Virus record (IMG/VR): IMGVR_UViG_3300048836_000712
Location: 1 to 61,711 of that record
DNA from: a virus
Reading direction: 5' to 3' (one strand)
DNA length: 61,711 bases
Shown here one piece after another: positions 1,607 through 43,349 of the stretch. The notes beneath the pieces are model-generated. The model saw only the letters and a list, made by a program, of their open reading frames with translations, was not told the DNA's origin and searched no databases. The stretch's first letter is position 1, and every line of letters starts with the position of its first letter. A program made the position numbers and the translations under genes.

Positions 1607-1885
1607 TTACGATTCGCAAGATGCGTCCCTGGATTCGGGAACTAATTTGCCGTGGCGTGCGCCGCCGGACCCGGTCGGCGCATTGGCTGGTTTTGAATCT
1701 TCTGGCGCCGATTCCGTAGGCGCGTGCTTGTTGCGCAGGCGGTAACTCTGGCCAGTGATGGCGATGATCTCGGCATGGTGCAGGAAGCGGTCGAGAATCG
1801 CCGTGGCGCTGGGAACGTCGCCAATCAGCTTGCCCCAGTCTTCCAGCGGCCGGTTGCTCGTCATCATCGTCGAGCGCGTTGGCAT
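1607..1885 (-). pseudogene. istB: IS21-family istB (helper ATPase) C-terminal remnant
   Basis: The minus strand encodes RSTMMTSNRPLEDWGKLIGD followed by VPSATAILDRFLHHAEII and a TGQSYRLR-like end, which is the typical C-terminal part of IstB, the AAA+ helper ATPase of IS21 transposons. The Walker A half and any istA transposase are absent. Similarity stops near 1878, just before Element 1. This is a decayed fragment. It fills the otherwise gene-free 1595-1897 stretch. Whether the missing half was removed when Element 1 arrived cannot be told: no istB N-terminal half is visible at the far end near 9.1-9.3 kb. Confidence 0.75.
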
Positions 1886-1893
1886 TGCGTTGA

Positions 1894-1900
1894 AGTCTTG
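1894..1900 (+). other. Candidate left attachment core of Element 1
   Basis: AGTCTTG, matching 9129-9135. Chosen because it coincides with the left limit of Element 1 codon use and lies about 15 bases after the istB homology ends. Flanking bases differ between copies, as expected for a serine-integrase core. Not proven. Confidence 0.3.
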
Positions 1901-2332
1901 GACCTATCCGGTGTGGAAGGCGAGTGCCAACGGTGCGGGCGGGCAATCCGATACGTCCACCGGATGGGCAACGACAAAGACCCCCGCAAGCTTTCGGTGG
2001 GTGGTTGTTGTGCAAAGAAGCTTTCCCCGGACCATGACGCCGAAGGGTTTGAACGGGACTTGTCCAATCGTGCGAAACGCCGAAGCCACTTCCCCACGTT
2101 GCTTGGGTGGCGTGAATCCTTGAAGGGCAATGATTGCATCACGCTTCCCAACATCAACGCAACGGTAACGGTGTTTCGTTCCCGCTTCGGTGAAGGGTTC
2201 GGTTGGTGCATTGTGATTGATGACGAAGAAGGCGAAGACACCACCAAGTTGTTTTCGGAAGACACCTTCACCACGAAGAAGGAAGCCAAGCTATCCGCTT
2301 GGGATGCGTTGGCCGAAAGGTTTGATTGGTGA
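1898..2332 (+). CDS. Small zinc-knuckle protein (phage-type hypothetical)
   Basis: From the TTG at 1898 this gives 144 residues. Near the N-terminus it has CQRCG followed by IRYVH and, 20 residues on, VGGCCAKK. The spacing CxxCG-x-IxYxH...VGxxC is seen in small phage-associated zinc-binding proteins. The rest is a mixed alpha/beta region with an acidic DDEEGED loop. The frame also runs upstream into DNA antisense to istB, which I exclude. No good ribosome site precedes 1898, so the true N-terminus may have been lost or lie across the element junction. First gene of Element 1; function unknown. Confidence 0.5.
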   Translation: MDLSGVEGECQRCGRAIRYVHRMGNDKDPRKLSVGGCCAKKLSPDHDAEGFERDLSNRAKRRSHFPTLLGWRESLKGNDCITLPNINATVTVFRSRFGEGFGWCIVIDDEEGEDTTKLFSEDTFTTKKEAKLSAWDALAERFDW

Positions 2333-2472
2333 CGCCCGCCCTAATGTTCGTGGCGGATAGTCACCACCCACCCCCGCCCCCCGGTGTCTAGGTTCTTTCT
2401 CCCCGATTATTCGTGAAGGGTTGGGCGGAACCAGCAAATTGGCCATGAAACAGACTCACCAAGGATGAAAAA

Positions 2473-3141
2473 ATGAAGCCCCAAGAAATCCAAGCCCAAT
2501 GGTTGAAGTGGTACGCCGCCGCGTTGGGATACTTCCAAGACTTGCACCCCGAAGGCTTACGCAAGGACCGTGGCGGAAATCTCATTCGTGAAAAAATCGA
2601 CCGGGCGGAAGACGGTTGGATAAAGCCCGAACTAGGCAAGTGGTTCCAAGAAGACTTTGGAACGCCCTTCACCGAAACCCACCGCCAAGCCTTCGCCAAA
2701 CAAGCCAAGGCAATGCAAGCCGCCGGACTTATCGAAGTGGAAACCACGGACCGGGGACGGCGGATTGCGTGGCTTCGGTTGACCACCAAGGGCTTGAAGC
2801 TTGCCCCGCAGGTAACGAAGAAGCCACCACGCCCGCCGCTTGGGATGGAAGACCTTGATTGGGCGGAAGCCAAGCTTCGTGAAACCATCGCCACTTGCAA
2901 CGCCACTCTTGCGAAGTTGCCCGAACACTTCCAAGCCCCGGCGGGTGAAGCCCGCTTCCTTGCCGAACACAACGCAACGAAACACAAAGACCGCCGCCAA
3001 CACTTGCAACGTTGCATTGAAGAAGCCCAAGCCAAGTTGCCCTTGGTGGCGGAAGGCAAGCAACGAATCATGCGCAGGGAAGACCCGTCCGCCGTGGTCA
3101 ACGCCACGCTTACCAAGGTCTTCCCTTCCCCAAAGAAGTAG
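2473..3141 (+). CDS. Predicted winged-helix protein of Element 1
   Basis: A 222-residue soluble protein starting at ATG 2473 after an AAGGAT ribosome site. Residues about 65-115 (AKAMQAAGLIEVETTDRG, then WLRLTTKGLKL) have the helix-wing pattern of a winged-helix fold, ending in the common LTTKG motif. The second half is a long, Lys/Glu-rich helical region. It may regulate the element, but this rests on the wing pattern alone. The family is not recognised. The stop codon abuts a compound palindrome at 3141-3187. Codon use is typical of Element 1. Confidence 0.6.
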   Translation: MKPQEIQAQWLKWYAAALGYFQDLHPEGLRKDRGGNLIREKIDRAEDGWIKPELGKWFQEDFGTPFTETHRQAFAKQAKAMQAAGLIEVETTDRGRRIAWLRLTTKGLKLAPQVTKKPPRPPLGMEDLDWAEAKLRETIATCNATLAKLPEHFQAPAGEARFLAEHNATKHKDRRQHLQRCIEEAQAKLPLVAEGKQRIMRREDPSAVVNATLTKVFPSPKK

Positions 3142-3187
3142 CGTGGACGTGGACGAAGGGCGTGAGCCCGAAGTTCACGGTCCACGC
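3141..3187. repeat. Compound palindrome, copy A
   Basis: GCGTGGAC (3141-3148) pairs with GTCCACGC (3180-3187). An inner near-match arm GTGGAC/GTTCAC follows, and the core is GGGC-GTGA-GCCC. The core context GACGAAGGGCG...AGCCCGAAG is shared with copy B at 6942-6992. It sits directly after a stop codon and could act as a terminator-like or protein-binding structure. Confidence 0.6.
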
Positions 3188-3303
3188 GAATAGGGGGCAA
3201 AGAATTTTTCCGGTAGGACTTGATCGGTTAGTGTGCAAACACTAGCATAGTGGTGGAACACTAATAAAAGGTGTCGGGACACTAGCGGCCAAGGGGACCA
3301 CCA

Positions 3304-3822
3304 ATGAAACGAATCGGACTATCGGCCAAGCGTTACCTTCAATACATGCGGGGCCGCATGAACCCCGCTCTTGTTCCCGATACGGAACCCAAAAGCACCG
3401 AAGCCACCGCCGGGGAATTGCGGGTCCGTGGATACGCCGCCACGGCGGACAAGTTGAAAACTCTTGTTCGTTCCGGGGTATTGGATTCGTCCACGTCCGA
3501 AGGCAAGCAAGCCGCGTGGACTCGGGAACGCATCGAAGCCGCCGCCGGGATTTTTGAAGCCCGCCAAGACTTCACCACGCAAGCCGCGTTCTATGCCGAA
3601 TACGGTTTGACCATGACGGACTTCGTGGACGCATTGGAAGCCGCCTTTGCCGCCGCCATCGACGAATACGGCAACGCCGCCTTGGTGGTCCTTTCGCCTT
3701 CCGCCAACGAAGACTTCTTTTGCATGACGATTGAACCCGCCTTCCGTAACGAACCCGCCGCCATTTCCTTTGCCCTTGCCCCCAAGGTCCGCAAGGAAAT
3801 TGAAAAGAAGGGCCGCAAGTAA
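3304..3822 (+). CDS. Hypothetical protein of Element 1
   Basis: A 172-residue protein starting at ATG 3304, with GGGGA upstream. The N-terminal third is basic (LSAKRYLQYMRGRMNP), the middle is helical, and the C-terminal part is mixed (ALVVLSPSANEDFFCM). It has no recognisable domain, signal peptide or membrane segment. It lies 43 bases before the protease-capsid gene in the same direction, the position where phage gene orders place portal or other head genes, but 172 residues is too short for a portal and no portal motif is visible. Function unknown. Confidence 0.55.
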   Translation: MKRIGLSAKRYLQYMRGRMNPALVPDTEPKSTEATAGELRVRGYAATADKLKTLVRSGVLDSSTSEGKQAAWTRERIEAAAGIFEARQDFTTQAAFYAEYGLTMTDFVDALEAAFAAAIDEYGNAALVVLSPSANEDFFCMTIEPAFRNEPAAISFALAPKVRKEIEKKGRK

Positions 3823-3865
3823 CGCCGCCCAGCACAACGGACACAAGCCATGAAAGGAAGCAACC

Positions 3866-5818
3866 ATGACCACCGCCGCCCCAACGCTGCCCGAGGAATT
3901 GACCCTTTCCGCCCCCTTCGTCTTGGACCTTGAAGCCAAGGCAGCGGGGGACGGTAAGCCCCGGTTTTCCCTTGTGGCGAATTCGGGAACGGAACCAATG
4001 AAGGTGGCGGGCTTCTTTGACCCGGTGGTAATTGACCTTGCCGGGGCAACCTTTGATCGGCAACCAACCCCGGTCATTGCGGACCATGACACCACCAAGC
4101 GGATTGGTCACACAACGAAGCAAGCGGTAACGTCCAACGGAATCATGGCGGAAGGGGTGGTGTCTTCCACTTCTCCCGAAGCCACTTCCTTTGTGGCGGA
4201 CGCCAAGGCGGGCTTCCCCTTCCAAGTATCGGTTGGGGCAGCGGTTCAAGAAGCGGTGTTCGTCCCCAAAGGACAATCCGCAACGGTCAACGGTAAGACC
4301 TTCAACGGTCCCATCATCGTTGCCAAGAAGACGTTGATTCGTGAATTGAGCGTAACGGTTTTGGGGGCGGACAAGAACACTTCCGCTTTGGTTGCCCAAG
4401 CCAATAAAAACCACTTTCAAAAAGGGAAGACTATGTCCACCACAACCACCACAAATGACCATGACACCATCCTTGCCGCCGAACGGGAACGGGTGGGATT
4501 GATTGACCAAGCCTTCACCGGGCTTGCGAGGGCCAAGCATGTTGCCGCCCAAGTTGCGGACCTTCGGGCCAAAGCCATGAAGGGCGAAGTTGACGTTGCG
4601 GACTTGCCCGAACGGATTGCGAAGCTTTCCAAGTTGGAAGGTCTTTACGCTGCCCTGCCGGGACAAACGCCGGGAACGGCAATCCATATCCGCCCCGGCA
4701 ACATTCCCAACAACCAAGCGGTGTTGGAAGCCGCCGTTGCTGGTTACGCTTGCGGGTCCAACATCGACCTTGAAGCCACCTATGGCGAAGCCACCGCCGA
4801 AGCCTCAAAGCGGTTGGGTGTCACTTGCCTTATGGACGTGGCAAAGCTTGCGGTTCAAGCAACGGGGCAAGTGTTGGATTGGCGAAACAAAGACCAAGTG
4901 ATTCGGGCTTCGTTTTCGACCGCCGATCTTGGCAACATCTTGTCCAACGTGGCAGGCAAAAGCTTGGAGCAAGCGTATCGGGCGTTCCCGTCCGCCGCCC
5001 GTATCGTGGCGAAGAAGCTGGACGCCGACAATTTCAAGGCCCATACGGGGCTTCGCCTCACCGGTGACGTTGCCTTCCAAAAGGTTGCGAAGGACGGGGA
5101 AATCAAGCATGGCAGTTTGTCGGATTCGGCCTATACCTACCGGGTTGAAACCTTCGCCCGCATGTTGGGCTTGGACCGTCAAACCTTGATTGATGACGAC
5201 ACAAGCAGTTTGGATGATTTGCCCCGCATGTTCGGACGTGGGGCAGCGTTGGCGGTTGAAGAAGTGTTTTGGACGTTGGTTCTTGCCAACACCGGAAGCT
5301 TCTTCCACGCGAACAACAAGAACCTAATTACCGGTGCAACATCGGTCTTGGGTGCAACGGGCTTGGGTCTTGGTGTCCAAAAGTTTTTGGAGCAAACGGA
5401 CGCCAACGGAAAGCCAATCGGCGTGGTCCCGAAGTGGTTGGTTGTTGGTCCGCCTAACAAAGTTACCGCCGATGAATTGTTTGTGTCCCGTACCTTCAAC
5501 GTGGGCGGTGGTTCCACCACGGCAAGCGACAAGGTCACCACGGCAAACGCCTTCTTCGGGCTTTATCAACCGGTGGTGTCGCCTTGGATTGCTTCCGCCG
5601 GTGGCATCGCGGGGGCTTCGGATACTTGTTGGTATCTGTTTGGCGACCCCCGGGACGTTGCCGCCTTCGGGTTGGCTTACTTGAACGGGTCCGAAGCCCC
5701 AACGATTGAACAAGTGGACCAACCCGCCAACAAGCTTGGCGTTCAATGGCGGGCATATCTCGATTTCGGTGCTTGCCAGATTGACCATAGGGGGGCGGTA
5801 CGTTCCGCCGGTGCATAG
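3866..5818 (+). CDS. Prohead protease-major capsid protein fusion (Element 1)
   Basis: A 650-residue protein joining an HK97-type prohead maturation protease to a major capsid protein. Residues 1-189 are the protease: the probable catalytic His is in IADHDTTKRIGH and the Ser in FQVSVGAAV, followed by RELSVTVLGADKNTS. Residues 190-650 are the capsid part, with a delta/coiled-coil region at about 200-260, then LGNILSNVAGKSLEQAYR, GEIKHGSLSDSAY, FARMLGLDRQTLIDDD and a C-terminal VQWRAYLDFG. The same blocks occur in the proteins at 33213-35234 and 45283-47124. SD AGGAAG precedes ATG 3866. An internal SD and ATG lie at the domain boundary. A terminator follows at 5940-5986. Confidence 0.88.
   Translation: MTTAAPTLPEELTLSAPFVLDLEAKAAGDGKPRFSLVANSGTEPMKVAGFFDPVVIDLAGATFDRQPTPVIADHDTTKRIGHTTKQAVTSNGIMAEGVVSSTSPEATSFVADAKAGFPFQVSVGAAVQEAVFVPKGQSATVNGKTFNGPIIVAKKTLIRELSVTVLGADKNTSALVAQANKNHFQKGKTMSTTTTTNDHDTILAAERERVGLIDQAFTGLARAKHVAAQVADLRAKAMKGEVDVADLPERIAKLSKLEGLYAALPGQTPGTAIHIRPGNIPNNQAVLEAAVAGYACGSNIDLEATYGEATAEASKRLGVTCLMDVAKLAVQATGQVLDWRNKDQVIRASFSTADLGNILSNVAGKSLEQAYRAFPSAARIVAKKLDADNFKAHTGLRLTGDVAFQKVAKDGEIKHGSLSDSAYTYRVETFARMLGLDRQTLIDDDTSSLDDLPRMFGRGAALAVEEVFWTLVLANTGSFFHANNKNLITGATSVLGATGLGLGVQKFLEQTDANGKPIGVVPKWLVVGPPNKVTADELFVSRTFNVGGGSTTASDKVTTANAFFGLYQPVVSPWIASAGGIAGASDTCWYLFGDPRDVAAFGLAYLNGSEAPTIEQVDQPANKLGVQWRAYLDFGACQIDHRGAVRSAGA
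4433..5818 (+). CDS. Internal in-frame start: free major capsid protein (Element 1)
   Basis: ATG 4433-4435 lies in frame in the fusion gene (residue 190), exactly at the protease/capsid boundary, and is preceded by AAAGGGAAGA (4421-4430), a good Shine-Dalgarno sequence. It would make a 461-residue capsid protein without the protease. The other two capsid genes in this window have the same arrangement, which supports use of the start. Nested in-frame starts in head genes are known, for example lambda C/Nu3. Confidence 0.6.
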   Translation: MSTTTTTNDHDTILAAERERVGLIDQAFTGLARAKHVAAQVADLRAKAMKGEVDVADLPERIAKLSKLEGLYAALPGQTPGTAIHIRPGNIPNNQAVLEAAVAGYACGSNIDLEATYGEATAEASKRLGVTCLMDVAKLAVQATGQVLDWRNKDQVIRASFSTADLGNILSNVAGKSLEQAYRAFPSAARIVAKKLDADNFKAHTGLRLTGDVAFQKVAKDGEIKHGSLSDSAYTYRVETFARMLGLDRQTLIDDDTSSLDDLPRMFGRGAALAVEEVFWTLVLANTGSFFHANNKNLITGATSVLGATGLGLGVQKFLEQTDANGKPIGVVPKWLVVGPPNKVTADELFVSRTFNVGGGSTTASDKVTTANAFFGLYQPVVSPWIASAGGIAGASDTCWYLFGDPRDVAAFGLAYLNGSEAPTIEQVDQPANKLGVQWRAYLDFGACQIDHRGAVRSAGA

Positions 5819-5823
5819 TTCAA

Positions 5824-5929
5824 CGGGTGTCGGCAACACCCGCACGCTTGGCCCACGCCCGGGAATCATGGTCCCGGGTATGGGGCAACGCCAAGTGTGG
5901 TCTTGGCCCCGTCCTTCACCAACGGGGCC
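5824..5929 (+). other. Cluster of hairpins after the capsid gene
   Basis: Three perfect hairpins stand in a row: CGGGTGT/ACACCCG (5824-5842), CCCGGGA/TCCCGGG (5858-5878) and GGCCCCGT/ACGGGGCC (5905-5929). A fourth, GCCAAG/CTTGGC (5890-5907), overlaps the third, so the two are mutually exclusive. A terminator follows at 5940. The density suggests a structured RNA, attenuator or DNA site rather than chance. Confidence 0.5.
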
Positions 5930-5939
5930 GGGGACGAAG

Positions 5940-5986
5940 AAGCCACCGGGGGAAACTTACAACTCCGCCCCCGGTGGCTTTCTTTC
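5940..5986 (+). terminator. Rho-independent terminator after the capsid gene
   Basis: AAGCCACCGGGGG (5940-5952) pairs perfectly with CCCCCGGTGGCTT (5968-5980) over a 15-base loop, followed by TCTTTC. It would end the capsid transcript, unless read through into the 6008 gene. Confidence 0.8.
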
Positions 5987-6007
5987 ATTCGCAACAAGGA
6001 CGAAGCC

Positions 6008-6220
6008 GTGTTGTTCCAATACATACGCAAGCCACGGAAGCCCACGCCCCAAGACACCGGGGCTTACTTGCCCACGCCCGAAGAAATCGCCACCACTTGC
6101 CGGGAAATCCAAAACGGTTGGACACCCGAAACGGAAGAAGACCGCCGGACGATTGCCCACAAGCCTTGGTTCGCCCCAATGGTTGCCGTGGAAGCCTTGC
6201 CCGAAGACGTGGACGAATGA
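6008..6220 (+). CDS. Small conserved island protein (YLPTxxEI family)
   Basis: A GTG start at 6008 with AAGGA seven bases upstream gives 70 residues. The key stretch is YLPTPEEIATTCREIQNGW followed by a charged segment. The protein at 42460-42693 of Element 3 has YLPTKREIAAKCRLFRAIKGW at the matching place, so both capsid islands carry a copy. Probably a short helix-turn-helix or helical adaptor; the function is not known. It lies just after the capsid terminator and converges with the minus-strand gene at 6244. Confidence 0.6.
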   Translation: MLFQYIRKPRKPTPQDTGAYLPTPEEIATTCREIQNGWTPETEEDRRTIAHKPWFAPMVAVEALPEDVDE

Positions 6221-6243
6221 AGCTAATAAAAACCACCAAAAGG

Positions 6244-6918
6244 TCATGCCGGGTAATCGGCAAGGAAACGCCCAACGTATTTGTGGGCGTCTTGAACGTC
6301 CGCCACGTTCACCTTGGCGAAGTTGCCGTGGGCAGCATCGTTGCGAACGTCCCCAATAGATTGAATCCGCCGCCACGCTGGTTTGTCGTAAACGGTTGCA
6401 CCATGCAAAGCATCGTTGTATTTCGCAAGGTTGCCGTTGCCGGTTACAGTCTTTCCATGTTTGGTGCAAAGCTTCTCCAAGTGGTCTTCCAAAACGCCAC
6501 CAATCAAAACCATTGCGGCAACGTGATAGCCTTGGTCCAAAAGGGACTTGGCTTGTTGCAAGAAATCGTCATGGATGTTTGCCCGAAGGCGGGCTTCCAA
6601 CGAAACAAGCAAGCCCCTATCCACCGCATCCCGCAAAGCCTTCAATGTTCCAAGAATCGAAGGGAGTGCGGTATTGCTATACCCCGGGACGCTAATCCTA
6701 TTTGCGTTGTCCAACTTAGGCAGCAATCGGAAGTATTGGCTTTGCTCACCCGCAATTCGTTCAACGATTGCGAAAGCTTGGGCTGCCAGTGTGCGAAATT
6801 CATGCTCTGGCAAATCCGAGTAATATGCTCCCATATCCATCTTGAAGGATTGGTCCAACCGGTTGCCTTCGGCAATAAGCCCGTCCAATTCCGCCAGCAA
6901 GTCCGCTTCGATACTCAT
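6244..6918 (-). CDS. HEPN/DUF4145-like protein
   Basis: A 224-residue, mostly helical protein. The C-terminal half has DVRNDAAHGNFAKV at about residue 190, giving the RNDAAH (R-x4-H) motif of HEPN-type proteins. Before it come HVAAMVLIGGVLEDHLEKL and the KPAWRRIQSIGDV helix, the arrangement of DUF4145-like HEPN domains. HEPN proteins are often RNases in toxin-antitoxin or abortive-infection systems, but many DUF4145-like members have no shown activity. It runs opposite to the capsid genes, like cargo. Start ATG 6918; a long palindrome lies just upstream. Family assignment is from motifs only. Confidence 0.65.
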   Translation of the reverse strand: MSIEADLLAELDGLIAEGNRLDQSFKMDMGAYYSDLPEHEFRTLAAQAFAIVERIAGEQSQYFRLLPKLDNANRISVPGYSNTALPSILGTLKALRDAVDRGLLVSLEARLRANIHDDFLQQAKSLLDQGYHVAAMVLIGGVLEDHLEKLCTKHGKTVTGNGNLAKYNDALHGATVYDKPAWRRIQSIGDVRNDAAHGNFAKVNVADVQDAHKYVGRFLADYPA

Positions 6919-6941
6919 GGATTCATCCCCAAAGAATTCGT

Positions 6942-6992
6942 GTTATGGACAAATGGACGAAGGGCGAAGCCCGAAGTCCATTTGTCCATAAC
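6942..6992. repeat. Compound palindrome, copy B
   Basis: GTTATGGACAAATGGAC (6942-6958) pairs perfectly with its complement at 6976-6992, and the centre holds GGGC-GAA-GCCC. The core resembles copy A at 3141-3187. It lies between the HEPN-like gene start and the end of the 7008 gene, so it could be a terminator for the latter, an operator, or a mobile palindromic unit. Confidence 0.7.
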
Positions 6993-7007
6993 ATCCCAAA
7001 TAGCGGT

Positions 7008-7394
7008 TCAACCGCACGTCAACTTCTTGTTGATGCTTACCGCCACGTCGGCAAGCGAAACGCTTCGGAAGAACGGGTGGAAGTTTTGCGGTGCAAGGAA
7101 GCCCATGCGACCACCGCCGGTATCCCAAACCGGAACCACGGTTCCCGCGAGTCCCGCCGCCGTCGCACACGCTTGTAGGCTTGCACAAACTTCGTTTTGC
7201 TCATGGTTGGTCTTGTGGCCGAATGAAGAAGCCACGAAGACAATAATCAAATCAACGCCTTGTTCCTTAACGTGGGCAACATCGAATGTCGTGGACACCT
7301 TGGGTTCCTCCCTACGGATGACTTGGGACGCCGAAACGGATAAGATAGACGGACCGCCCAAGGTGCTGGAAACACCAGGGGCGGTCCTAACCAC
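7008..7394 (-). CDS. Hypothetical protein, Rossmann-like N-terminal half
   Basis: 128 residues from a GTG at 7394. The middle has GVDLIIVFVASSFGHKTNH, a beta strand followed by a charged loop, then alternating helices and strands (TVVPVWDTGGGRMG, SLADVAVSINKKL). This suggests a small alpha/beta fold, possibly nucleotide-binding; no family is recognised. It reads away from the integrase gene, whose start is only about 30 bases off, so the two share a divergent control region. The N-terminal 20 residues are less convincing and a later start is possible. Confidence 0.5.
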   Translation of the reverse strand: MVRTAPGVSSTLGGPSILSVSASQVIRREEPKVSTTFDVAHVKEQGVDLIIVFVASSFGHKTNHEQNEVCASLQACATAAGLAGTVVPVWDTGGGRMGFLAPQNFHPFFRSVSLADVAVSINKKLTCG

Positions 7395-7424
7395 AACACC
7401 CCTTTGTTAAGGAAAGGGAACGTC

Positions 7425-9251
7425 ATGGCTGCACGCCATTCTATCGCCACGCCCACGGCAAGGGCAGTTGCTTACATTCGCCGGTCCACCCACAAGCAAG
7501 AAAAATCCCTTGCGGACCAACGGCGGGAGATTGAAGCCTACGCCGATCGGGAAGGCTTCGTGATTGTCCGTTGGTTTGAAGACGACGGCATAAGTGGGGA
7601 CGCCACCGACAAGCGAAACGGTTTCCAAGCCATGCACGCCAAGGCTTGCAACGGGCGGGACTTTGACGTGATTCTTTGTTGGGACCAAGACCGCTTCGGG
7701 CGGTTCAACAGCATTGAAGCGGGCTATTGGATTCACCCGCTTATGAAAGCCGGGGTCCGCCTTGTCACCGTCACCGAAGGGCCGATCAATTGGGACGATT
7801 TCAGCGGGCGTATCGTCCACGCCGTCAAGCAAGAAGGCAAACACCAATTCTTGGTGGACCTTTCCCGCAACGTCGCCCGGGGGCAGATTACCGCCGTTGC
7901 CCAAGGTTGGATTACCGGGCGTGCCGCCCCTTACGGGTTTGACCGGATGTTGGTTGACGAAGCCGGGAACCACAAGCAACGGGTTCACAATTGCGAACCG
8001 GTGGCGAAGCCCCGTTCATGGCATGTTACCTTAGTCATTGCCGACAACCCCGAAGTGGTCCGCGTTGCCAAGTGGCTGTTTGAAACCTACGTCAACGAAG
8101 ACGTGGGCTTGCGTGAATTGGTCAACCGGTTGAACGGGCAAGGCATCCCCGGCCCCCGGGGCGGACCTTGGCACTTGGGGACTGTCCGGGAAATCTTGAA
8201 GAACGAAACCTACGCCGGGGACTTCATTTGGCCCAAGCGAAGCCTTGGAAAATACCACCGCATTTCCGCCGGGGAAATCAAACCCCGCAACGGGTCAACC
8301 GCCGTGAAGCATACGGACCACGCCGAACGGGTCCACCACGAAGGCATGTTCCCCGCGTTGGTTGACCGCGAAACCTTCAACCGCGTTCAAGCCAAGCTTA
8401 CGGAACGGAAGAAGCGGACCACGCCCCACAAGGCGAAGAACGGGGACGATTACCTTCTTTCCGGTTTGGTCCATTGCGAACATTGCGGGGCCAAAATGTA
8501 CGGGGCACGTTCCAACGCCACGAAGAACGGAAAGAAGTACAGTTACCCCCGCTACGTTTGCTCCACCTATCACACGAAGGGCCGCCACCTTTGCAACCAC
8601 AATACGGTTGACCAAGGGAAGTTGCTTGCCGCCATCGTCACCAAGCTTCGCCAAACGGTGTTGGCGGGCGGTGGCGTGGAACAAGTGGCTTCCCGCGTTG
8701 CCGCCATGTTGAAGAAGCAACTTTCCGCCGCCGGTGGCGAGTCCGAAGGGTTGCGTTCCCGGTTGGCGGAATTGGACAAGCAAGTGGCCCAAGGAACCAA
8801 GCGCTTGCTTGCGGCCCCGGATGACGTGGCGGACCTTCTGGCAGCGGAACTATCCAACCTACGCCGGGAACGGGACCACTTGGCCGAACGGTTGAAGCAA
8901 TCGGCCCCTGCCCCGGTGGACGTGGAAGCCCAAGCGGAAGCCTTGGCCCAACGCCTTTGGACCTTCACCGAAGAAGTGGCCAAAGCCACGCCCGCCCGGC
9001 AACGGGAGTTGCTTCGCCGGGTGGTGGGCAAGATAAGCCTACGGTTTCGCCAAACGAAGTGGGGCCGCAAGTCCGTATCCCGCTTTGACGGCGGAACGGT
9101 GGACTTGCGGCCCCATTCGGACTTGTACAGTCTTGTCAGTCGGGGCGACTGGCCGTCGTTTGAACGCGTGGTCGCGACCGTGGTGGACGCCGCGCTCTCG
9201 CCAAACGCGGAAACCATTGTAGCACACCGGGTTGTACGGTTGTCGGCGTGA
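7425..9251 (+). CDS. Large serine integrase of Element 1
   Basis: A site-specific recombinase of the large serine family, 608 residues from ATG 7425 (SD AAGGAAAGGG at 7409-7418 is placed for this ATG, not the TTG at 7404). The resolvase domain begins AVAYIRRSTHKQEKS, with the nucleophile Ser at about 21. The recombinase domain contains NRLNGQGIPGPRGGPW. A zinc-ribbon has HCEHCGAK...YVCSTYH...LCNH, followed by a coiled coil. The last about 40 residues (from SRGDWPSFERVV) change codon style, so they may be host DNA fused at attachment core 9129-9135. It would integrate and excise Element 1. Confidence 0.9.
   Translation: MAARHSIATPTARAVAYIRRSTHKQEKSLADQRREIEAYADREGFVIVRWFEDDGISGDATDKRNGFQAMHAKACNGRDFDVILCWDQDRFGRFNSIEAGYWIHPLMKAGVRLVTVTEGPINWDDFSGRIVHAVKQEGKHQFLVDLSRNVARGQITAVAQGWITGRAAPYGFDRMLVDEAGNHKQRVHNCEPVAKPRSWHVTLVIADNPEVVRVAKWLFETYVNEDVGLRELVNRLNGQGIPGPRGGPWHLGTVREILKNETYAGDFIWPKRSLGKYHRISAGEIKPRNGSTAVKHTDHAERVHHEGMFPALVDRETFNRVQAKLTERKKRTTPHKAKNGDDYLLSGLVHCEHCGAKMYGARSNATKNGKKYSYPRYVCSTYHTKGRHLCNHNTVDQGKLLAAIVTKLRQTVLAGGGVEQVASRVAAMLKKQLSAAGGESEGLRSRLAELDKQVAQGTKRLLAAPDDVADLLAAELSNLRRERDHLAERLKQSAPAPVDVEAQAEALAQRLWTFTEEVAKATPARQRELLRRVVGKISLRFRQTKWGRKSVSRFDGGTVDLRPHSDLYSLVSRGDWPSFERVVATVVDAALSPNAETIVAHRVVRLSA
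9129..9135 (+). other. Candidate right attachment core of Element 1
   Basis: AGTCTTG inside the integrase gene, matching 1894-1900. Codon choice shifts from the Element 1 pattern immediately after it. If correct, the circular form has a different integrase C-terminus. Tentative. Confidence 0.3.
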
Positions 9252-11799: not shown

Positions 11800-13299
11800 A
11801 TGGCCGAGAAAGAACTCGACCTCTCGACGCTTTCCAACCACCTGTGGGAATCCGCCAACATCTTGCGCGGCCCGGTCGACGCTGCCGATTTCAAGACTTA
11901 CATCTTCCCGCTGCTATTCTTCAAACGCATTTCCGACGTGTTCGACGAGGAAATCGCCGAGGCCCTCGACGAGTCGGGTGGCGACCAGCAGTACGCCTTG
12001 TTCCCTGAGAACCACCGCTTTCAGATCCCCGACGATTGCCACTGGGCAGACGTGCGGAAGAAAACGAACAACGTCGGCCAAGGCCTACAGCGGGCCATGC
12101 GGGAGATCGAGAAAGCCAACCCTGACACGCTCTACGGGATCTTCGGCGATGCCCAATGGACGAATAAGGATCGCCTTTCGGACGCACTTCTTCGCGACCT
12201 GATCGAACACTTCTCAAAGTTGCCGCTGGGGAACAAGGCTGCCCGCGCCGACATTCTCGGCCAGTCCTACGAATACCTCATCAAGAAGTTTGCCGACGCC
12301 ACCAACAAGAAGGCGGGTGAGTTCTATACGCCTCGTAGTGTCGTCAACCTCATGGTTCGCATCCTGAACCCTCGGGAAGGTGAAACCATCTACGACCCCG
12401 CCTGCGGCACCGGCGGCATGCTCATCGAAGCAATTCACCATGTCCGCGAGGCCGGCGGCAACATTCGCACGCTCTGGGGGAAGCTCTTCGGCCAGGAGAA
12501 GAACCTCACCACGTCCGCCATCGCCCGCATGAATCTGTTCTTGCACGGCGTAGAGGACTTCCAGGTGGTTCGCGGCGATACGCTTCGCCAACCCGCCTTT
12601 CACACCGGTGATAGTCTCGCCACCTTCGATTGCGTGATCGCCAATCCGCCATTCTCACTGGAAAAGTGGGGCGACGATGTGTGGAGCAGCGATCCCTACG
12701 GTCGCAACTTCGCTGGTATGCCACCTGCAAAGAGCGGCGACTACGCCTGGGTGCAGCACATGATCCTTTCGATGGCTCCCAAATCGGGTCGCATGGCCGT
12801 CGTCTTGCCCCACGGCGCACTGTTCCGCATGGCCGCCGAAGGCAAGATTCGCGAGAAACTGCTGGGCATGGATATCCTCGATGCTGTGATCGGCCTCGGG
12901 CCAAACCTGTTCTACGGCACCAGCCTGGCCGCTTGCATCTTGGTGTTCCGCCTGAAGAAACCGAAGGACCACCGCAAAAAGGTGCTGATCGTCGATGCCT
13001 CGAAGGAGTTCAAGAAGGGTCGCGCCCAGAACGAACTTCTCCCCGAGCACGTTGACCACATTTACCAGTGGTATGTCGGCCACAAGGATGTCGCAGGCAT
13101 TGCCCGGCTGGTTCCGCTCGACGAAATCCAGCAGAACGATTGGAACCTGAACATTCCACGATACGTTGAGCCGGTCGTCGAAGCGGAAACGCTCACGGTG
13201 GCCGATGCCCTTGCCAACCTAAAGACCAGCCTCGATGCCGCATACGCCGCCGAGGATCGACTCAAATCACTGCTGGCGAAAGCGGGGCTAATGCAATGA
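11800..13299 (+). CDS. hsdM: Type I restriction-modification adenine methyltransferase, copy 1
   Basis: HsdM, the N6-adenine methyltransferase subunit of a type I RM system, 499 residues. The N-terminal HsdM domain (LWESANILRG, FFKRISDVFDEE) is followed by GEFYTPRSVVNLMV, the SAM-binding motif DPACGTGGM at about 200 and the catalytic NPPF at about 281. A full-length, intact gene. Its TGA overlaps the next gene's ATG (13296-13299), so the two methyltransferases are translationally coupled. It works with HsdS for target choice and with HsdR for cleavage. Confidence 0.95.
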   Translation: MAEKELDLSTLSNHLWESANILRGPVDAADFKTYIFPLLFFKRISDVFDEEIAEALDESGGDQQYALFPENHRFQIPDDCHWADVRKKTNNVGQGLQRAMREIEKANPDTLYGIFGDAQWTNKDRLSDALLRDLIEHFSKLPLGNKAARADILGQSYEYLIKKFADATNKKAGEFYTPRSVVNLMVRILNPREGETIYDPACGTGGMLIEAIHHVREAGGNIRTLWGKLFGQEKNLTTSAIARMNLFLHGVEDFQVVRGDTLRQPAFHTGDSLATFDCVIANPPFSLEKWGDDVWSSDPYGRNFAGMPPAKSGDYAWVQHMILSMAPKSGRMAVVLPHGALFRMAAEGKIREKLLGMDILDAVIGLGPNLFYGTSLAACILVFRLKKPKDHRKKVLIVDASKEFKKGRAQNELLPEHVDHIYQWYVGHKDVAGIARLVPLDEIQQNDWNLNIPRYVEPVVEAETLTVADALANLKTSLDAAYAAEDRLKSLLAKAGLMQ

Positions 13300-14801
13300 G
13301 TACCCGCATCACCCAATCGCAACTCGAATCGTACTTGTGGGGCGCGGCCGTCCTGCTGCGCGGTTACATCGACGCGGGCGACTATAAGCAGTTCATCTTC
13401 CCGCTGCTGTTCTACAAGCGGCTGTGCGATGTGTTCGACGAAGAGGTGGCCGCGGCGCTGGCGGAGTCAGGCGGCGATCAGGCGTATGCCCACTTTGCCG
13501 AGAATCATCGATTTCAGATCCCCGAGGACGCCCACTGGAAAACCGTTCGTGAAGCCAGCAAGAACGTCGGCACCAAGTTGCAGAATGCATTCCGGGCAAT
13601 TGAGACAGCCAACCCCGACAAGCTCTTCGGTATCTTTGGCGACGCGCAGTGGACCAACAAAGACCGTCTGCCCGACCACACCCTCAAGGAACTGATCGAG
13701 CACTTTAGCTCGCTCACTCTGTCGGTCGCCAACTGCCCCGAGGATGAACTCGGCGTCGGGTATGAGTACCTCATTAAGAAGTTCGCTGACGATTCCGGCC
13801 ACACCGCCGCCGAATTCTACACGAACCGCACCGTCGTCCATCTGATGACTGAACTGCTCCAGCCGCAGCCGGGCGAATCGATCTACGATCCCACTTGCGG
13901 ATCAGGCGGCATGCTCCTGTCGTCCATCGCTCACCTGCGAAAGCAAAAGAAGGAATGGCGGACGGTAAAGCTCTTCGGCCAAGAGCGAAACCTGATGACC
14001 TCGTCCATCGCCCGGATGAACTGCTTTCTGCACGGTGTCGAAGACTTCCAGATCATTCGCGGAGACACGCTGGCCGAGCCCAAGTTCGTGGCTGGCGACC
14101 GGCTGCATCAGTTCGATGTGTGCCTGGCCAATCCACCGTACTCGATCAAGCAATGGGATCGCGACGCATTTGTTTCTGATCCCTGGGGTCGCAATATTTA
14201 CGGAACGCCCCCGCAAGGCCGCGCCGACTATGCCTTCTGGCAGCACATTATCCAAAGCCTGAACCCGAAGACTGGTCGCTGCGCGATCCTGTTTCCGCAT
14301 GGTGTGCTGTTTCGCAACGAAGAAACCGAGATGCGGCGGAAACTGGTCGAGCACGATGTCGTTGAAACGGTGCTCGGACTGGGGCCTAACCTGTTCTACA
14401 ACTCGCCGATGGAAGCGTGCGTCGTGATCTGCCGGATGAAGAAATCCCGCAAACGTAAGGGCAAGATTCAATTCATCAATGCCGTGAACGAAGTCACTCG
14501 CGAACGAGCGCAAAGCTTTCTAACCGACGCCCATATCGCTCGAATCGTCTCATCCTATGAAAGCGACGACGATCTGCCTGAGTTCTCACGGCTCGTTCCG
14601 CTCGAGGAAATTCGTAGCCAGCAGCACAACCTGAGCATCCCGCTCTACGTGCGGACGGAATCGACCACCGCTAACGGCAATGGCCAGCCGCACGGGTCGG
14701 TCAAGGAGGCCATTGGGGCATGGCAAGCCAGCTCGCGGAAGCTTCGGCAGTCGATGGACGATCTGTTCAGCACGCTCAAGGAGGCTGGCGTTGGCAAGTA
14801 A
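13296..14801 (+). CDS. hsdM: Type I restriction-modification adenine methyltransferase, copy 2
   Basis: A second HsdM, 501 residues, clearly paralogous to the first: LWGAAVLLRGYIDAGDYKQF, FYKRLCDVFDEE, SAM motif DPTCGSGGM at about 198 and catalytic NPPY at about 279. Both copies keep all key residues, so neither is an obvious pseudogene. Two hsdM genes in one operon with a single hsdS is unusual; the usual enzyme has two copies of one HsdM, so a heterodimeric methyltransferase is possible. The 3' end overlaps hsdS by 11 bases. Confidence 0.93.
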   Translation: MSTRITQSQLESYLWGAAVLLRGYIDAGDYKQFIFPLLFYKRLCDVFDEEVAAALAESGGDQAYAHFAENHRFQIPEDAHWKTVREASKNVGTKLQNAFRAIETANPDKLFGIFGDAQWTNKDRLPDHTLKELIEHFSSLTLSVANCPEDELGVGYEYLIKKFADDSGHTAAEFYTNRTVVHLMTELLQPQPGESIYDPTCGSGGMLLSSIAHLRKQKKEWRTVKLFGQERNLMTSSIARMNCFLHGVEDFQIIRGDTLAEPKFVAGDRLHQFDVCLANPPYSIKQWDRDAFVSDPWGRNIYGTPPQGRADYAFWQHIIQSLNPKTGRCAILFPHGVLFRNEETEMRRKLVEHDVVETVLGLGPNLFYNSPMEACVVICRMKKSRKRKGKIQFINAVNEVTRERAQSFLTDAHIARIVSSYESDDDLPEFSRLVPLEEIRSQQHNLSIPLYVRTESTTANGNGQPHGSVKEAIGAWQASSRKLRQSMDDLFSTLKEAGVGK

Positions 14802-16011
14802 GGTGAAAACAACGACGACCGCCCCCGCGAACAACGCCAGCCTTCCTAAAGGCTGGCGGATGGTTCGGTTCGATGAACTCGCACAGATGGTCAACGAACG
14901 AGTTGATCCTTCGGCGACCGACGCCGACATCTACGTTGGACTGGAGCACCTCGATCCCGATTCGCTCAAGTTGCGTCGCTGGGGAACGCCGAGCGACGTC
15001 ATCGGTGACAAGCTGCAGTTTCGGAAGGGTGACATTATCTTTGGCCGGCGGCGGGCGTATCAGAGGAAGTTGGCGGTCGCTGAGTTCGATGGCATATGTT
15101 CGGCCCATGCAATGGTCGTTCGCGCAAATGCGGAGACGGTCGACCCGGAGTTCCTGCCGTTTCTGATGCAAAGCGATCTCTTCATGCAGCGGGCCATCGA
15201 CATTTCGGTCGGGTCCCTTTCGCCTACGATCAACTGGAAGACTCTCCGCATCCAAGAGTTCCCGCTGCCGCCGAAGGACGAGCAACGCCGCATCGCCGAC
15301 ATACTCTGGGCGGCGGAGGATGCTATCGAGTCTTGGGATGCAGCCGTAGAGTGTTTCGCGGCGCTGCTAGATGCAATCTCACTCGACGAATTCAGCTCTC
15401 ATCCCTCGGATACGACTGCGATTTCACCAGTTGACCTGTGTGAGTCTGTGACAGTGGGAATTGTCGTTACGCCAGCCAAATGGTATTGCAGTGATGGAGT
15501 TCCAGCGCTCAGATCGTTGAATGTGTTTCCCGATAGATTTGTATTGGACGATCTAGTTCGACTCACACAGACTGGTCATAACGAACATCGCAAGTCGGAA
15601 TTGAGCGAAGGGGATGTTGTAATCGTTCGCACAGGCCGCCCCGGCGATGCGGCAGTTGTAACTAGAGATGTACATGGATTTAATGCGATTGATCTCATTA
15701 TTGCCCGTCCTCTCCCGACACTGGACCCTCATTTTCTTAGTCGGTTTCTAAACTCAGCTGCGGGACGACGGCAACTTCGCCGCGGCACTGCCGGCACTGC
15801 CCAGCAGCATTTCAACGTCGGCGAAATGAAGCATCTTCGAATTCCTGTGCGAACACTTAACGGACAGGCGGAAACTGTCGCCCGAATGCGAGCCGTCGAA
15901 ACAAAATTACAGGACGCAGTTAAGAATCGAGAGTGCCTGCGCCGTATGGCCACAATTCTCAGGGACACGTTGCTCTGCAACAGATCGGGGGACCACAAGC
16001 GTGTTTACTGA
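14791..16011 (+). CDS. hsdS: Type I restriction-modification specificity subunit
   Basis: HsdS, 406 residues from TTG 14791, chosen because AAGGAGG lies at 14779-14785, the right distance away; a GTG or ATG start fits less well. Two target-recognition domains: about 15-170 (PKGWRMVRFDELAQ start) and about 215-390. The central conserved spacer is EFPLPPKDEQRRIADIL and a second conserved helix is at the end. The second recognition domain (15450-15800) is clearly more AT-rich than its surroundings, a sign that this half was exchanged recently, which is common for hsdS. It overlaps hsdR by 11 bases. Confidence 0.9.
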   Translation: MASKVKTTTTAPANNASLPKGWRMVRFDELAQMVNERVDPSATDADIYVGLEHLDPDSLKLRRWGTPSDVIGDKLQFRKGDIIFGRRRAYQRKLAVAEFDGICSAHAMVVRANAETVDPEFLPFLMQSDLFMQRAIDISVGSLSPTINWKTLRIQEFPLPPKDEQRRIADILWAAEDAIESWDAAVECFAALLDAISLDEFSSHPSDTTAISPVDLCESVTVGIVVTPAKWYCSDGVPALRSLNVFPDRFVLDDLVRLTQTGHNEHRKSELSEGDVVIVRTGRPGDAAVVTRDVHGFNAIDLIIARPLPTLDPHFLSRFLNSAAGRRQLRRGTAGTAQQHFNVGEMKHLRIPVRTLNGQAETVARMRAVETKLQDAVKNRECLRRMATILRDTLLCNRSGDHKRVY

Positions 16012-18904
16012 AGCCAATACCATCGAGCAGATGGTCATCGACGCCTGTGTGTCGTTAGGTTGGCGCTATTCCCCCGCGCCGGCGCTTCCACGTCAAACAT
16101 CGGAGGTGTTCGTCGAATCGCTGCTGCGCGCCTCGCTCATCAAGCTCAACCCCGAGATCGCCGCCCAACCTGACAGAGCCGATGAGGTGATCTACAAGCT
16201 GCGGGCGATCCTGCTGACGGTGCAGAACGATGGAGTGGTTCGTTCCAACGAAGCCCTTTCCGAGTGGCTGCAGGGGGACAAGACGATGCCGTTCGGCCCG
16301 AACGGTGAGCATACAGCAGTTCGTTTGATCGACTTCGAGAACCCTGCGAACAACGACTTGGTCGTCTGCAATCAATGGACTTACCAAGTGGGCCTGCTCT
16401 CCAAGAGGTTCGACGTGGTGTTGCTGGTCAACGGCCTGCCGATCGTGATTGGTGAGGCTAAGACGCCCGTTCGTCCTGCGGTCACTTGGGTCGATGGGGC
16501 CGCGCAAGTTCATGACGACTATGAACAAAGCGTGCCGGGGATGTTCGTGCCGAATGTTTTTAGCTTCGCCACCGAAGGAAAGGCGTTCCGCTATGGCTCG
16601 GTGCGTATGCCAATCGACATCTGGGGCCCGTGGCGCGACGCCGACAACCAGCAAGAAGGTTCGCTGTCGGACGTGCGAAAGTCGGTCGCCAGCATGTTCC
16701 GCCCGGAGGTAGTGCTCGACATCCTCCAGAATTTCACCTTGTTCGCGACAGACAAGAAGCACCGCCGGATAAAGACAATCTGCCGCTATCAGCAGTACGA
16801 GGGCACGAATCTAATCGTTCAGCGCGTGGTGCAATCGAAGATCAAGAAGGGTCTGATCTGGCATTTTCAAGGTTCTGGCAAGTCGCTGCTGATGGTCTTC
16901 ACGGCGCAGAAGCTGCGGATGCATCCGGCGCTTGGGAACCCGACGGTGATGATCGTCGTGGATCGAATCGACCTCGATACGCAAATCACTGCGACATTCA
17001 GTGCCGCCGATGTGCCAAACATGGTCAAGGCCGACAGCCGCGAGGCGCTGCAAACCTTGCTGGCCCAGGACGTGCGGAAAGTGGTCATCACCACGATCCA
17101 CAAGTTTGGCGAGGCCGAAGGCGTTCTGAACGACCGCAAGAACATCATCGTGCTGGTGGACGAGGCCCACCGCACCCAGGAAGGCGACCTGGGCCGCAAG
17201 ATGCGCACGGCCTTGCCGAACGCGTTTCTCTTCGGCTTGACCGGAACGCCGATCAACCGCGCCGACAAAAATACTTTCTGGGCGTTCGGGGCCGATGAAG
17301 ACGAGAAGGGCTACTTGAGCCGCTACACGTTTCAGGAGTCGATTCGCGACAAGGCGACATTGCCGCTGCACTTCGAGTCGCCTGAGATCAAGCTCAAGAT
17401 CGACAAAGCGGCCATCGACGAAGCGTACAAACAGATCACGGATAACCTAAGCGAGCAGGACCGCGATGACCTGGCTAAGCGGGCCGCCAAGATGGCAGTG
17501 CTCGTCAAGTCGCCCGAGCGGGTACGGGGCGTTGTGCAGCACATCGTCAATCACTATCAGTCCAAGGTGGAGCCGAACGGCTTCAAGGCCCAAGTGGTGA
17601 CCTTCGACCGCGAATGCTGCGTGATGTACAAAGCCGCGATGGACGAAATGACGGGCGACCCGGAGTGTAGCGCCATTGTGATGCACGTCACACAGGGAGA
17701 TCCGGCCGAGTGGAAAGTACACGGCCGCGACAAGGATTCCGAGGAAAAACTGCTTGACCGGTTCCGCGATCCTGGCGACCCGCTGAAATATCTGATCGTC
17801 ACCTCGAAACTGCTTACCGGGTTCGACGCCCCAATTCTGCAGGCGATGTATCTCGATAAGCCGATGAGAGATCACAACCTGTTGCAAGCCATCTGTCGCA
17901 CGAACCGCCCCTACCCGAACAAGACTCACGGCTTGATCGTCGATTACATCGGCATTTTTGATGATGTGGCCCAGGCGCTCGACTTTGACGAAAAGGCGGT
18001 CCAGCAGGTCATTACGAATCTGGACGATGTGAAAAAGGAACTGCCGAAGCAGGTCGTCGCGTGCCTCGCGTTCTTTCCGGGCGTCGACCGCACCGTGGGC
18101 GGCTACGAGGGACTTATCGCGGCGCAGGACTGTCTGCCGAACAATGAAAAACGGGATGCGTTCGCAGCCGCCTACTCAGTTCTGGGGCGCATTTGGGAGG
18201 CGTTATCGCCGGACGTATGCCTATCGCCTTACGAAACCGACTATCGCTGGCTGACGCAGGTGTACGAATCGGTGAAGCCGCCCAGCGGGAACGGCAAGCT
18301 GCTATGGCATGTTCTCGGTGCCAAGACCATTGAATTGATCCATCGAAACACGCACTTGGACACCATCCGCGACGATCTTGAAACCCTGGTAATGGATGCC
18401 GAAGTATTGGAAAGCGTCCTCGGTGTGCCAGATCCCGACAAGAAGGGCAAGACGCTGGAGATCAATTTGGTCGCCCGTCTTCGCAAGCACGGCAAGGACC
18501 CGAAGTTCGTCGCCCTGGGCGAACGACTGGAGAAGATCAAAGAGAAGCACGAGCAGGGGCTTCTCGACAGCAAGGAGTTTCTGAAACAGCTTCTCGAATT
18601 GGCGCGTGACGTGGTCGAGGCCGAGAAAAAGGTCGACCCCGTTGAAGAGCAGGACAAAGCAAAGGCGGCGCTGACGGAGCTTTTCCAGCAGGTGAAGAAT
18701 GCCGAGACGCCGGTGATCGTTGAACGGATCGTGGCGGACATCGACGAGATCGTGCGGATGGTACGGTTCCCTGGTTGGCAGCAAACCACCGCTGGCGAAC
18801 GCGAAGTGCAGAAGGCCCTCAGGAAAACGCTGCTAAAATACCACTTGCACAAGGACCAGGAACTGTTCGACCGGGCGTATGGGTATATTCGTCAGTACTA
18901 CTAA
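16001..18904 (+). CDS. hsdR: Type I restriction endonuclease subunit R
   Basis: HsdR, 967 residues from GTG 16001, the translocating nuclease of the RM complex. The N-terminal nuclease domain has FDVVLLVNGLPIVIGEAKTP (the D...ExK core), followed by two helicase domains with Walker A FQGSGKSLLM at about 290, DEAH box LVDEAHRTQ at about 385 and LFGLTGTPIN. A later motif ICRTNRPYPNKTHGLIVDY and a helical C-terminal assembly domain complete the family layout at normal length. Intact, so the system can restrict unmodified DNA. The frame follows hsdS with an 11-base overlap. Confidence 0.95.
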   Translation: MFTEANTIEQMVIDACVSLGWRYSPAPALPRQTSEVFVESLLRASLIKLNPEIAAQPDRADEVIYKLRAILLTVQNDGVVRSNEALSEWLQGDKTMPFGPNGEHTAVRLIDFENPANNDLVVCNQWTYQVGLLSKRFDVVLLVNGLPIVIGEAKTPVRPAVTWVDGAAQVHDDYEQSVPGMFVPNVFSFATEGKAFRYGSVRMPIDIWGPWRDADNQQEGSLSDVRKSVASMFRPEVVLDILQNFTLFATDKKHRRIKTICRYQQYEGTNLIVQRVVQSKIKKGLIWHFQGSGKSLLMVFTAQKLRMHPALGNPTVMIVVDRIDLDTQITATFSAADVPNMVKADSREALQTLLAQDVRKVVITTIHKFGEAEGVLNDRKNIIVLVDEAHRTQEGDLGRKMRTALPNAFLFGLTGTPINRADKNTFWAFGADEDEKGYLSRYTFQESIRDKATLPLHFESPEIKLKIDKAAIDEAYKQITDNLSEQDRDDLAKRAAKMAVLVKSPERVRGVVQHIVNHYQSKVEPNGFKAQVVTFDRECCVMYKAAMDEMTGDPECSAIVMHVTQGDPAEWKVHGRDKDSEEKLLDRFRDPGDPLKYLIVTSKLLTGFDAPILQAMYLDKPMRDHNLLQAICRTNRPYPNKTHGLIVDYIGIFDDVAQALDFDEKAVQQVITNLDDVKKELPKQVVACLAFFPGVDRTVGGYEGLIAAQDCLPNNEKRDAFAAAYSVLGRIWEALSPDVCLSPYETDYRWLTQVYESVKPPSGNGKLLWHVLGAKTIELIHRNTHLDTIRDDLETLVMDAEVLESVLGVPDPDKKGKTLEINLVARLRKHGKDPKFVALGERLEKIKEKHEQGLLDSKEFLKQLLELARDVVEAEKKVDPVEEQDKAKAALTELFQQVKNAETPVIVERIVADIDEIVRMVRFPGWQQTTAGEREVQKALRKTLLKYHLHKDQELFDRAYGYIRQYY

Positions 18905-38885: not shown

Positions 38886-39074
38886 TCAATTGCCGGTTCC
38901 GATCACGCGTTCCCAGGTCGTGATTCGTTGCCCGCAGTGTCGGCACTCTCTACGACGAACAACCTTTCCACCCCAGGCCGAGCGAGTGTAGACAACCCAG
39001 AAATGTCTGCAGCCACAGTTGTGGCATTGAAGGCCGCGGTCGCCATCACGGGGCATCTTCTGATCGTGCTTCAC
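38886..39074 (-). CDS. Small zinc-ribbon protein (NrdR/Ogr-like)
   Basis: 62 residues with two CxxC knuckles, CHNCGCRHFW at about 17 and CRHCGQRITTWERV at about 45, the latter close to the NrdR zinc-ribbon RxxCxxCxxRFTTxE. Its ATG overlaps the stop of the terminase part (39071-39074). Small zinc proteins at this place can be late-gene activators (Ogr/Delta type), but the layout is not a clear match. It could read with terminase as one transcript. Confidence 0.7.
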   Translation of the reverse strand: MKHDQKMPRDGDRGLQCHNCGCRHFWVVYTRSAWGGKVVRRRECRHCGQRITTWERVIGTGN

Positions 39075-42430: not shown

Positions 42431-42459
42431 CGTGGGCGACGTGGTGGCGAACCGGGGCA

Positions 42460-43310: not shown

Positions 43311-43349
43311 GGGTACGGGGGGGCGCGCGTACAGAACACACAAAGCGCA

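What the first reader, a model, noticed from the sequence alone, without database searches (positions are those of the whole stretch)
1894..9135. Element 1, a 7.2-kb island of the same kind with its own integrase
Element 1 repeats the plan of Element 3: protease-capsid fusion, a YLPT-type small protein, large serine integrase, cargo genes in the opposite direction, and no terminase, portal or tail. Two independent islands with this plan, in one window, suggest a family of minimal capsid islands. Uniform and unusual codon use shows it came from another genome.
Basis: partly seen in the sequence, partly recalled or inferred. Interest (0 to 1): 0.7.

Follow-up and report, generated by a model that had tools for sequence, protein, structure and literature searches.

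The report
Capsid-carrying phage satellite lacking packaging genes
A 7.3-kb stretch of planctomycete DNA is most likely a parasite of phages (a satellite) that brings its own shell protein but must borrow a phage's packaging motor and tail, and unlike the DNA around it, it has almost purged one three-letter DNA word (CAG/GAG and their complements) from both strands.

Summary
Element 1 is real and discrete. It carries an intact protease-capsid fusion, a MerR-fold small protein, a YLPT protein, two opposite-strand cargo genes and a large serine integrase. Profile searches find no portal, terminase or tail gene. Its right edge is an att core conserved exactly in two related phages. Its left edge is an IS21 (istB) remnant that truncates the first gene, so this copy is probably damaged. 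Relatives in Planctomycetota show that a small-protein plus capsid pair without portal or terL recurs, with serine or tyrosine integrases; one has the PICI order int-HTH-primase-Zn ribbon-small-capsid. Best explanation: a PICI-like, capsid-carrying satellite, independent of Element 3, which belongs to a separate family sitting inside prophage genes. The unusual codon use is real, but it is a by-product of something stranger: 5'-SAG-3'/5'-CTS-3' trinucleotides are depleted about six-fold on both strands, in all frames and between genes, and across codon boundaries even with protein and codon counts fixed. The same holds in a 57%-identical island in another genome whose flanks are normal. That DNA-level motif avoidance is unexplained.

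The parts
1607..1879 (-). istB C-terminus (IS21 family) remnant that truncates the left end of the element
   Evidence: Pfam IstB_IS21 1.9e-16, profile residues 185-236 of 238
1880..2332 (+). Cys-rich/DUF2688-like protein gene, start lost at the IS junction
   Evidence: weak homolog L151:15894-16148 (31%, 7e-5; phmmer 4e-4); DUF2688 0.009
2473..3141 (+). 222-aa protein, possible winged helix; no homolog found in the fetched loci
   Evidence: HTH_34 0.019, below cut-off; no PHROG; one weak partial genome hit, 30% over 86 aa
3304..3822 (+). 172-aa 'small protein' (SMALL family) just upstream of the capsid gene; residues 27-90 fold like the MerR winged helix
   Evidence: alignment A4; L151 homolog 50%; AF2 pLDDT 86.6; VIA-align Z 7.1, 57 residues, 2.1 A to HiNmlR
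3866..5818 (+). protease-major capsid fusion, 650 aa, intact
   Evidence: PHROG 4523 7.5e-71; Pfam Phage_capsid_4 2.1e-38; protease His in ADHD and Ser in QVSVG present
5897..6220 (+). YLPT-type small protein, 107 aa
   Evidence: homolog L248:7387-7593 (5.7e-5); weak counterpart in Element 3, 42460-42708(-)
6244..6918 (-). cargo gene, 224 aa, weakly DUF4145/HEPN-like
   Evidence: DUF4145 2.5e-4, HEPN_RiboL-PSP 4.5e-4, both below cut-off; no PADLOC hit
7008..7394 (-). cargo gene, 128 aa
   Evidence: phrog_35754 0.0022
7404..9251 (+). large serine integrase; conserved part ends near 9152
   Evidence: PHROG 95 7.1e-91; Resolvase, Recombinase and Zn-ribbon domains; 55-56% to the integrases of phage contigs L012-L014
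9130..9152 (+). int-proximal att core GTCTTGTCAGTCGGGGCGACTGG; right end of the element
   Evidence: 23 bp identical in L012 and L013 and nowhere else listed in viral contigs; in L012 it abuts the 3' half of a tRNA-like gene (RF00005 17.9 bits, below gathering)
1880..9152 (.). whole element; SAG/CTS-depleted segment (75 sites; about six-fold below mononucleotide expectation)

Best explanation
Element 1 is a capsid-carrying phage satellite (PICI-like genomic island) of Planctomycetota whose left end was later truncated by an IS21 insertion or deletion. Shown: an integrase with an att core at its 3' end; an intact protease-capsid gene directly preceded by a MerR-fold DNA-binding protein gene; no portal, terminase or tail gene; the same small-protein plus capsid pair without packaging genes in several unrelated islands. 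Inferred: in an intact copy the integrase inserts the island at a tRNA-like 3' end. When a resident or incoming phage is induced, the island excises and replicates, usually with a primase or AAA protein that most relatives carry and this copy lacks. It then makes its own procapsids from the protease-capsid fusion. The helper supplies portal, large terminase and tail. The small winged-helix protein either switches on the capsid operon or, like the lambda-type small terminase, directs the helper's terminase to island DNA. Separately, the lineage is under long-lasting pressure to avoid the DNA word SAG/CTS, most simply because a DNA-cutting system with that short target is met during its life cycle.
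For: No portal, terminase or tail profile hit, while 73 of 105 fetched capsids of this family have a portal just upstream. Small-capsid islands without portal or terL nearby: L120, L122, L139, L243, L247, L248, L249, L251, L256. L256 has the order Phage_integrase - HTH_17 - D5 primase - Zn ribbon - small - capsid. A sister of Element 1, L151, has small protein 50%, capsid 57% (up to 68% over residues 9-194), a primase/AAA protein and a 1724-like gene. Integrase att core. The distinct codon and motif signature begins and ends at the element's edges. The capsid is intact and on its own branch, so it is not a fragment of Phage P or Element 3.
Against: No induction, excision or packaging data. Left att, and any left-hand genes, are lost. 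No replication gene is recognisable. No tRNA lies at the right edge in this window, so the present location was not produced by a simple tRNA insertion. Only one close relative (L151) was found and it is itself decayed (capsid truncated, no integrase on the contig). INT1's nearest relatives are in phages with portal and tail genes of another capsid type.
Confidence: 0.7

Rival explanations
1. Decayed prophage: a full planctomycete phage lost its terminase, portal and tail genes, leaving capsid, a regulator and integrase.
For: The left end is truncated by IS21. The capsid family is mostly a phage family. INT1 relatives sit in full phages.
Against: In the phages a portal lies directly upstream of the capsid. 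Here a small DNA-binding protein occupies that place, as in many other islands with serine or tyrosine integrases. Capsid, integrase and small protein are all intact, and no remnants of portal or tail genes are seen.
Confidence: 0.17
2. SAG/CTS depletion is a background property of an unsampled host lineage, so Element 1 and L151 are recent arrivals from hosts with an extreme trinucleotide bias.
For: Some planctomycete genomes are moderately depleted genome-wide (0.56 in G651's sampled 20 kb).
Against: Among 38 sampled genomes the lowest is 0.56 and the lowest 1.5-kb window is 0.39, against 0.15 and 0.24 for the two islands. The islands are near synonymous saturation (72 of 113 fourfold sites differ) yet both keep the signature inside surroundings with normal composition. 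Lys prefers AAG (0.79) while Gln prefers CAA (0.96), against a simple A/G bias.
Confidence: 0.35
3. The island makes a protein shell for something other than packaging itself with a helper (an encapsulin-like or gene-transfer role).
For: Capsid without portal or terminase; two cargo genes.
Against: The prohead-protease fusion and the phage capsid families matched are virion maturation features. Integrase and att core show mobility. PICIs commonly carry lone capsid genes (PMC10111431).
Confidence: 0.08

Closest known systems
Gram-negative PICIs and helper-embedded PICIs (PMC10111431)
   Same: Small islands with integrase, HTH regulator, primase and often a lone capsid gene (21 of 29 reference PICIs); some sit inside helper late genes, as Element 3 and its relatives do here
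   Different: Those are enterobacterial and Pasteurellaceae elements; Element 1 has a large serine integrase, a protease-capsid fusion, a MerR-fold partner gene and no primase in this copy, and is not embedded in a phage gene
Capsid-forming PICIs (cf-PICIs; from my own knowledge, paper not read here)
   Same: They make their own capsids and depend on helper tails
   Different: cf-PICIs encode their own portal and terminase; none is present here
Planctomycete prophages with terL - portal - protease-capsid, such as the window's own Phage P and L020-L099
   Same: Same capsid family (about 32-40% identity)
   Different: They carry portal directly upstream and terL; Element 1 has neither
Chlorovirus nicking endonucleases with 3-bp sites (lead only; Nt.CviPII and Nt.CviQII papers are cited in PMC8845596)
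   Same: Show that nucleases with targets as short as 3 bp exist, one with an AG-methylating partner (reference title)
   Different: No such enzyme was identified here; this is an analogy for the SAG/CTS avoidance

Membership tests
PICI / PICI-like satellite | Integrase and att site | tested here: met
PICI / PICI-like satellite | Replication gene (primase or AAA) | tested here: not met
   none recognised in Element 1; present in sister L151 and in L256, L249, L251; Element 1's left end is missing. This is why the claim is 'PICI-like', not 'a PICI'
PICI / PICI-like satellite | AlpA/excisionase-like regulator | tested here: inconclusive
   the small protein has a MerR-type winged helix; HTH_34 weak in 2473
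PICI / PICI-like satellite | No complete virion gene set | tested here: met
PICI / PICI-like satellite | Helper-dependent induction and packaging | not testable with these tools
   needs experiment
cf-PICI | Own capsid, portal and terminase | tested here: not met
   capsid only
Helper-embedded PICI | Integrated in a helper prophage late gene | tested here: not met
   flanks are istB and a non-phage regulator gene; Element 3 and its relatives do sit in prophage genes (terL, portal)
Tailed prophage | Portal and large terminase with the capsid | tested here: not met

The most novel reading that the evidence does not exclude
A lineage of capsid-carrying satellites has purged a 3-bp DNA word (5'-SAG-3'/5'-CTS-3') from its genome on both strands because a DNA-targeting enzyme with that very short recognition site (a helper-phage nuclease that degrades unmodified DNA, a host defence, or a weapon of the satellites themselves) attacks it: immunity by sequence depletion rather than by modification.
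Probability: 0.4. Interest if true: 0.85.

Novelty: new variant of a known kind. Interest (0 to 1): 0.7.

Why it matters
It points to a broad, apparently undescribed class of capsid-carrying satellites in Planctomycetota; no paper on phage satellites in this phylum turned up in the open-licence library searched. The class is recognisable by a small MerR-fold gene plus a protease-capsid gene without portal or terminase. It extends the PICI plan to serine integrases and a new phylum. The element also carries a sharp, testable anomaly: near-removal of one trinucleotide pair at DNA level, with edges that coincide with the element's ends and with the signature kept after synonymous saturation. Finding the enzyme behind it would reveal a DNA-targeting system with an unusually short site and show how satellites escape it without modification.

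Tried and rejected
Small protein as portal or terminase: no profile hit, and no Foldseek match with E <= 0.001. A lambda gpNu1-like role was considered; no sequence hit to a solved structure and no gpNu1 row among the listed fold matches (absence is not evidence). CAP1, integrase, small-protein and 2473 searches of IMG/VR found no close copy of the island, nor did L151's primase. Simple tRNA-site insertion at the present location: no tRNA in the window and no second att core (matches at chance level). The tRNA 3' sequence of L012 was not found in six host-candidate genomes. tRNA-driven codon bias as the cause of the codon signature: rejected by the synonymous shuffle. A longer parent motif (4-mer or palindrome) for the depletion: all one-base contexts on either side are depleted. 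An mRNA-level cause: rejected because both strands and intergenic DNA are affected. Defence-gene identity for cargo: no PADLOC hit.
Full report
What is there. Element 1 occupies about 1880-9152 of a 61.7-kb IMG/VR record that also holds a planctomycete prophage (here 'Phage P') and Element 3. Its genes are: a truncated Cys-rich protein (from 1880 to 2332), 2473-3141 (unknown), 3304-3822 (small protein, 'SMALL'), 3866-5818 (protease-capsid fusion), 5897-6220 (YLPT protein), 6244-6918 and 7008-7394 on the minus strand (cargo), and 7404-9251 (large serine integrase). Pfam and PHROGs give strong hits for the capsid and the integrase and nothing for portal, terminase or tail.

Edges. Three independent signals agree on the edges. 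(1) Codon usage: all 8 genes of the element score positive and all 21 tested genes elsewhere in the window negative in leave-one-out log-odds. (2) SAG/CTS content drops to 0.10-0.23 of expectation in every 1-kb bin from 2 to 9 kb and is 0.65-1.42 in all other bins. (3) Homology: on the left IstB homology ends at 1879 where homology to a gene of the related island L151 begins at 1880. On the right, the integrase matches phage integrases L012-L014 up to a 23-bp sequence at 9130-9152 that is identical in L012 and L013. In L012 this sequence abuts the 3' half of a tRNA-like gene, so this integrase group probably uses a tRNA 3' end. In the window no tRNA follows, and the left end is an IS21 scar. 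The copy is therefore probably not mobile, although its integrase and capsid reading frames are intact.

Relatives. In 73 of 105 fetched members of this capsid family a portal lies just upstream, so the family is basically a phage family. But a second arrangement recurs: SMALL directly upstream of the capsid gene and no portal or terL nearby. Element 3's family does this with sigma factor - SMALL - capsid - AAA protein - cargo - serine integrase. Its members sit inside prophage genes: terL in the window, L121, L164 and L165; a DNA-methyltransferase gene in L122, L123 and L163 (and next to its broken 5' part in L134, L162, L166, L167); and a portal gene in L133. Others have tyrosine integrases: L248, L249, L251 and L256. 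L256, within a 6.1-Mb contig, has the PICI order integrase - HTH_17 - D5 primase - zinc ribbon - SMALL - capsid. Element 1's own closest relative is L151 in genome G622: SMALL 50%, capsid 57% (68% over residues 9-194), a Zn-ribbon/Toprim/AAA primase-like protein and a weak 1724-like gene; it is truncated and has no integrase on its contig. G622 also carries a near copy of Element 3 (86-89% nucleotide identity).

Independence of Elements 1 and 3. A maximum-likelihood capsid tree places Element 3 in a well-supported clade made only of islands (99/100) and CAP1 on a long separate branch on the phage side (96/94). Island capsids need at least four label changes. The place of the long CAP1 branch is unsure, but it is not in Element 3's clade. 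The SMALL proteins of the two elements are homologous (alignments A3, A4) and their YLPT proteins weakly so. The two elements thus share a plan with parts from different sources.

The small protein. AlphaFold2 on 26 sequences gives pLDDT 86.6. Residues 27-90 match MerR-family winged helices (HiNmlR Z 7.1, 57 residues, 2.1 A; RacA, CadR, SoxR), under the level that would prove kinship but consistent across several MerR proteins. Role: inferred only. It may activate the capsid operon, or act like a lambda-type small terminase to point the helper's terminase at satellite DNA. From my own knowledge, the lambda small terminase also has a winged helix of this general type; no sequence link was found.

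The motif anomaly. It is real: Gln CAA 0.96, Glu GAA 0.91, Leu CTG 0.05 and CTC 0.03, yet Lys AAG 0.79. The four avoided codons are two reverse-complement pairs, CAG/CTG and GAG/CTC. The avoidance holds on both strands, in all three frames and between genes. Only 75 such trinucleotides remain in 7.27 kb, 0.15 of the mononucleotide expectation. All flanking-base contexts are depleted, so the motif is the 3-mer itself. With protein and codon counts held fixed by synonymous shuffling, cross-codon occurrences are still 0.27 of expected (z -7.7 and -11.6). L151's island gives 0.22 (z -5.9 and -9.4). Controls from the window and L256 give 0.85-1.04; L254, L245 and L147 are weaker (0.59-0.73). Thirty-eight sampled planctomycete genomes average 0.99, lowest 0.56. 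Other trimers also shift (CGA/TCG, TAA/TTA, GTA/TAC) but less. Element 1 and L151 differ at 72 of 113 fourfold sites, so the pressure has lasted beyond synonymous saturation. This is shown; its cause is not. Enzymes with 3-bp DNA sites exist (restriction-derived nickases typically have 3-7 bp sites, PMC8845596), so a nuclease met in the life cycle is the simplest selective cause. An extreme host composition is the main rival.

Comparison with the known. The nearest described elements are PICIs. Enterobacterial PICIs often carry a lone capsid gene (21 of 29), and some sit in helper late genes (PMC10111431). Element 1 works like these by inference but lacks a primase in this copy and is not embedded in a phage gene. 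It is not a capsid-forming PICI, because portal and terminase are absent. I found no description of satellites in Planctomycetota in the open-licence library, which does not cover most subscription journals.

Verdict.

Noticed in passing
39071-50876: Element 3 sits inside Phage P's large terminase gene: N-terminal part 50783-51748(-), C-terminal part fused behind the element's serine integrase in ORF 39071-42232(-). Relatives are inserted in terL (L121, L164, L165), a methyltransferase gene (L122, L123, L163) and portal (L133). A 50-bp segment (50826-50875) is kept at the element's edge whether the neighbour is terL or the methyltransferase.
   Followed up: partly
L162, L167: Contigs in which an Element-3-type capsid is followed directly by Phage-P-like downstream genes with terL, portal, integrase and (in L167) the phage capsid missing, as if recombination had occurred between the two capsid genes.
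   Followed up: no
7354-7443: 90 bp spanning the integrase start is 78% identical to the same place in Element-3-type island L163 (15294-15379), though the integrases are only distantly related.
   Followed up: no
11800-18904: Type I restriction-modification genes with two adjacent hsdM-like genes; 11876-11997 is 74% identical to 13369-13490.
   Followed up: no
L308 (G651:C1:1-20000): A planctomycete genome piece with moderate SAG/CTS depletion (0.56 overall), a milder form of the Element 1 signature.
   Followed up: no
L254:4000-15600; L245:3000-10297: Capsid-carrying islands with partial SAG/CTS depletion relative to their flanks.
   Followed up: partly
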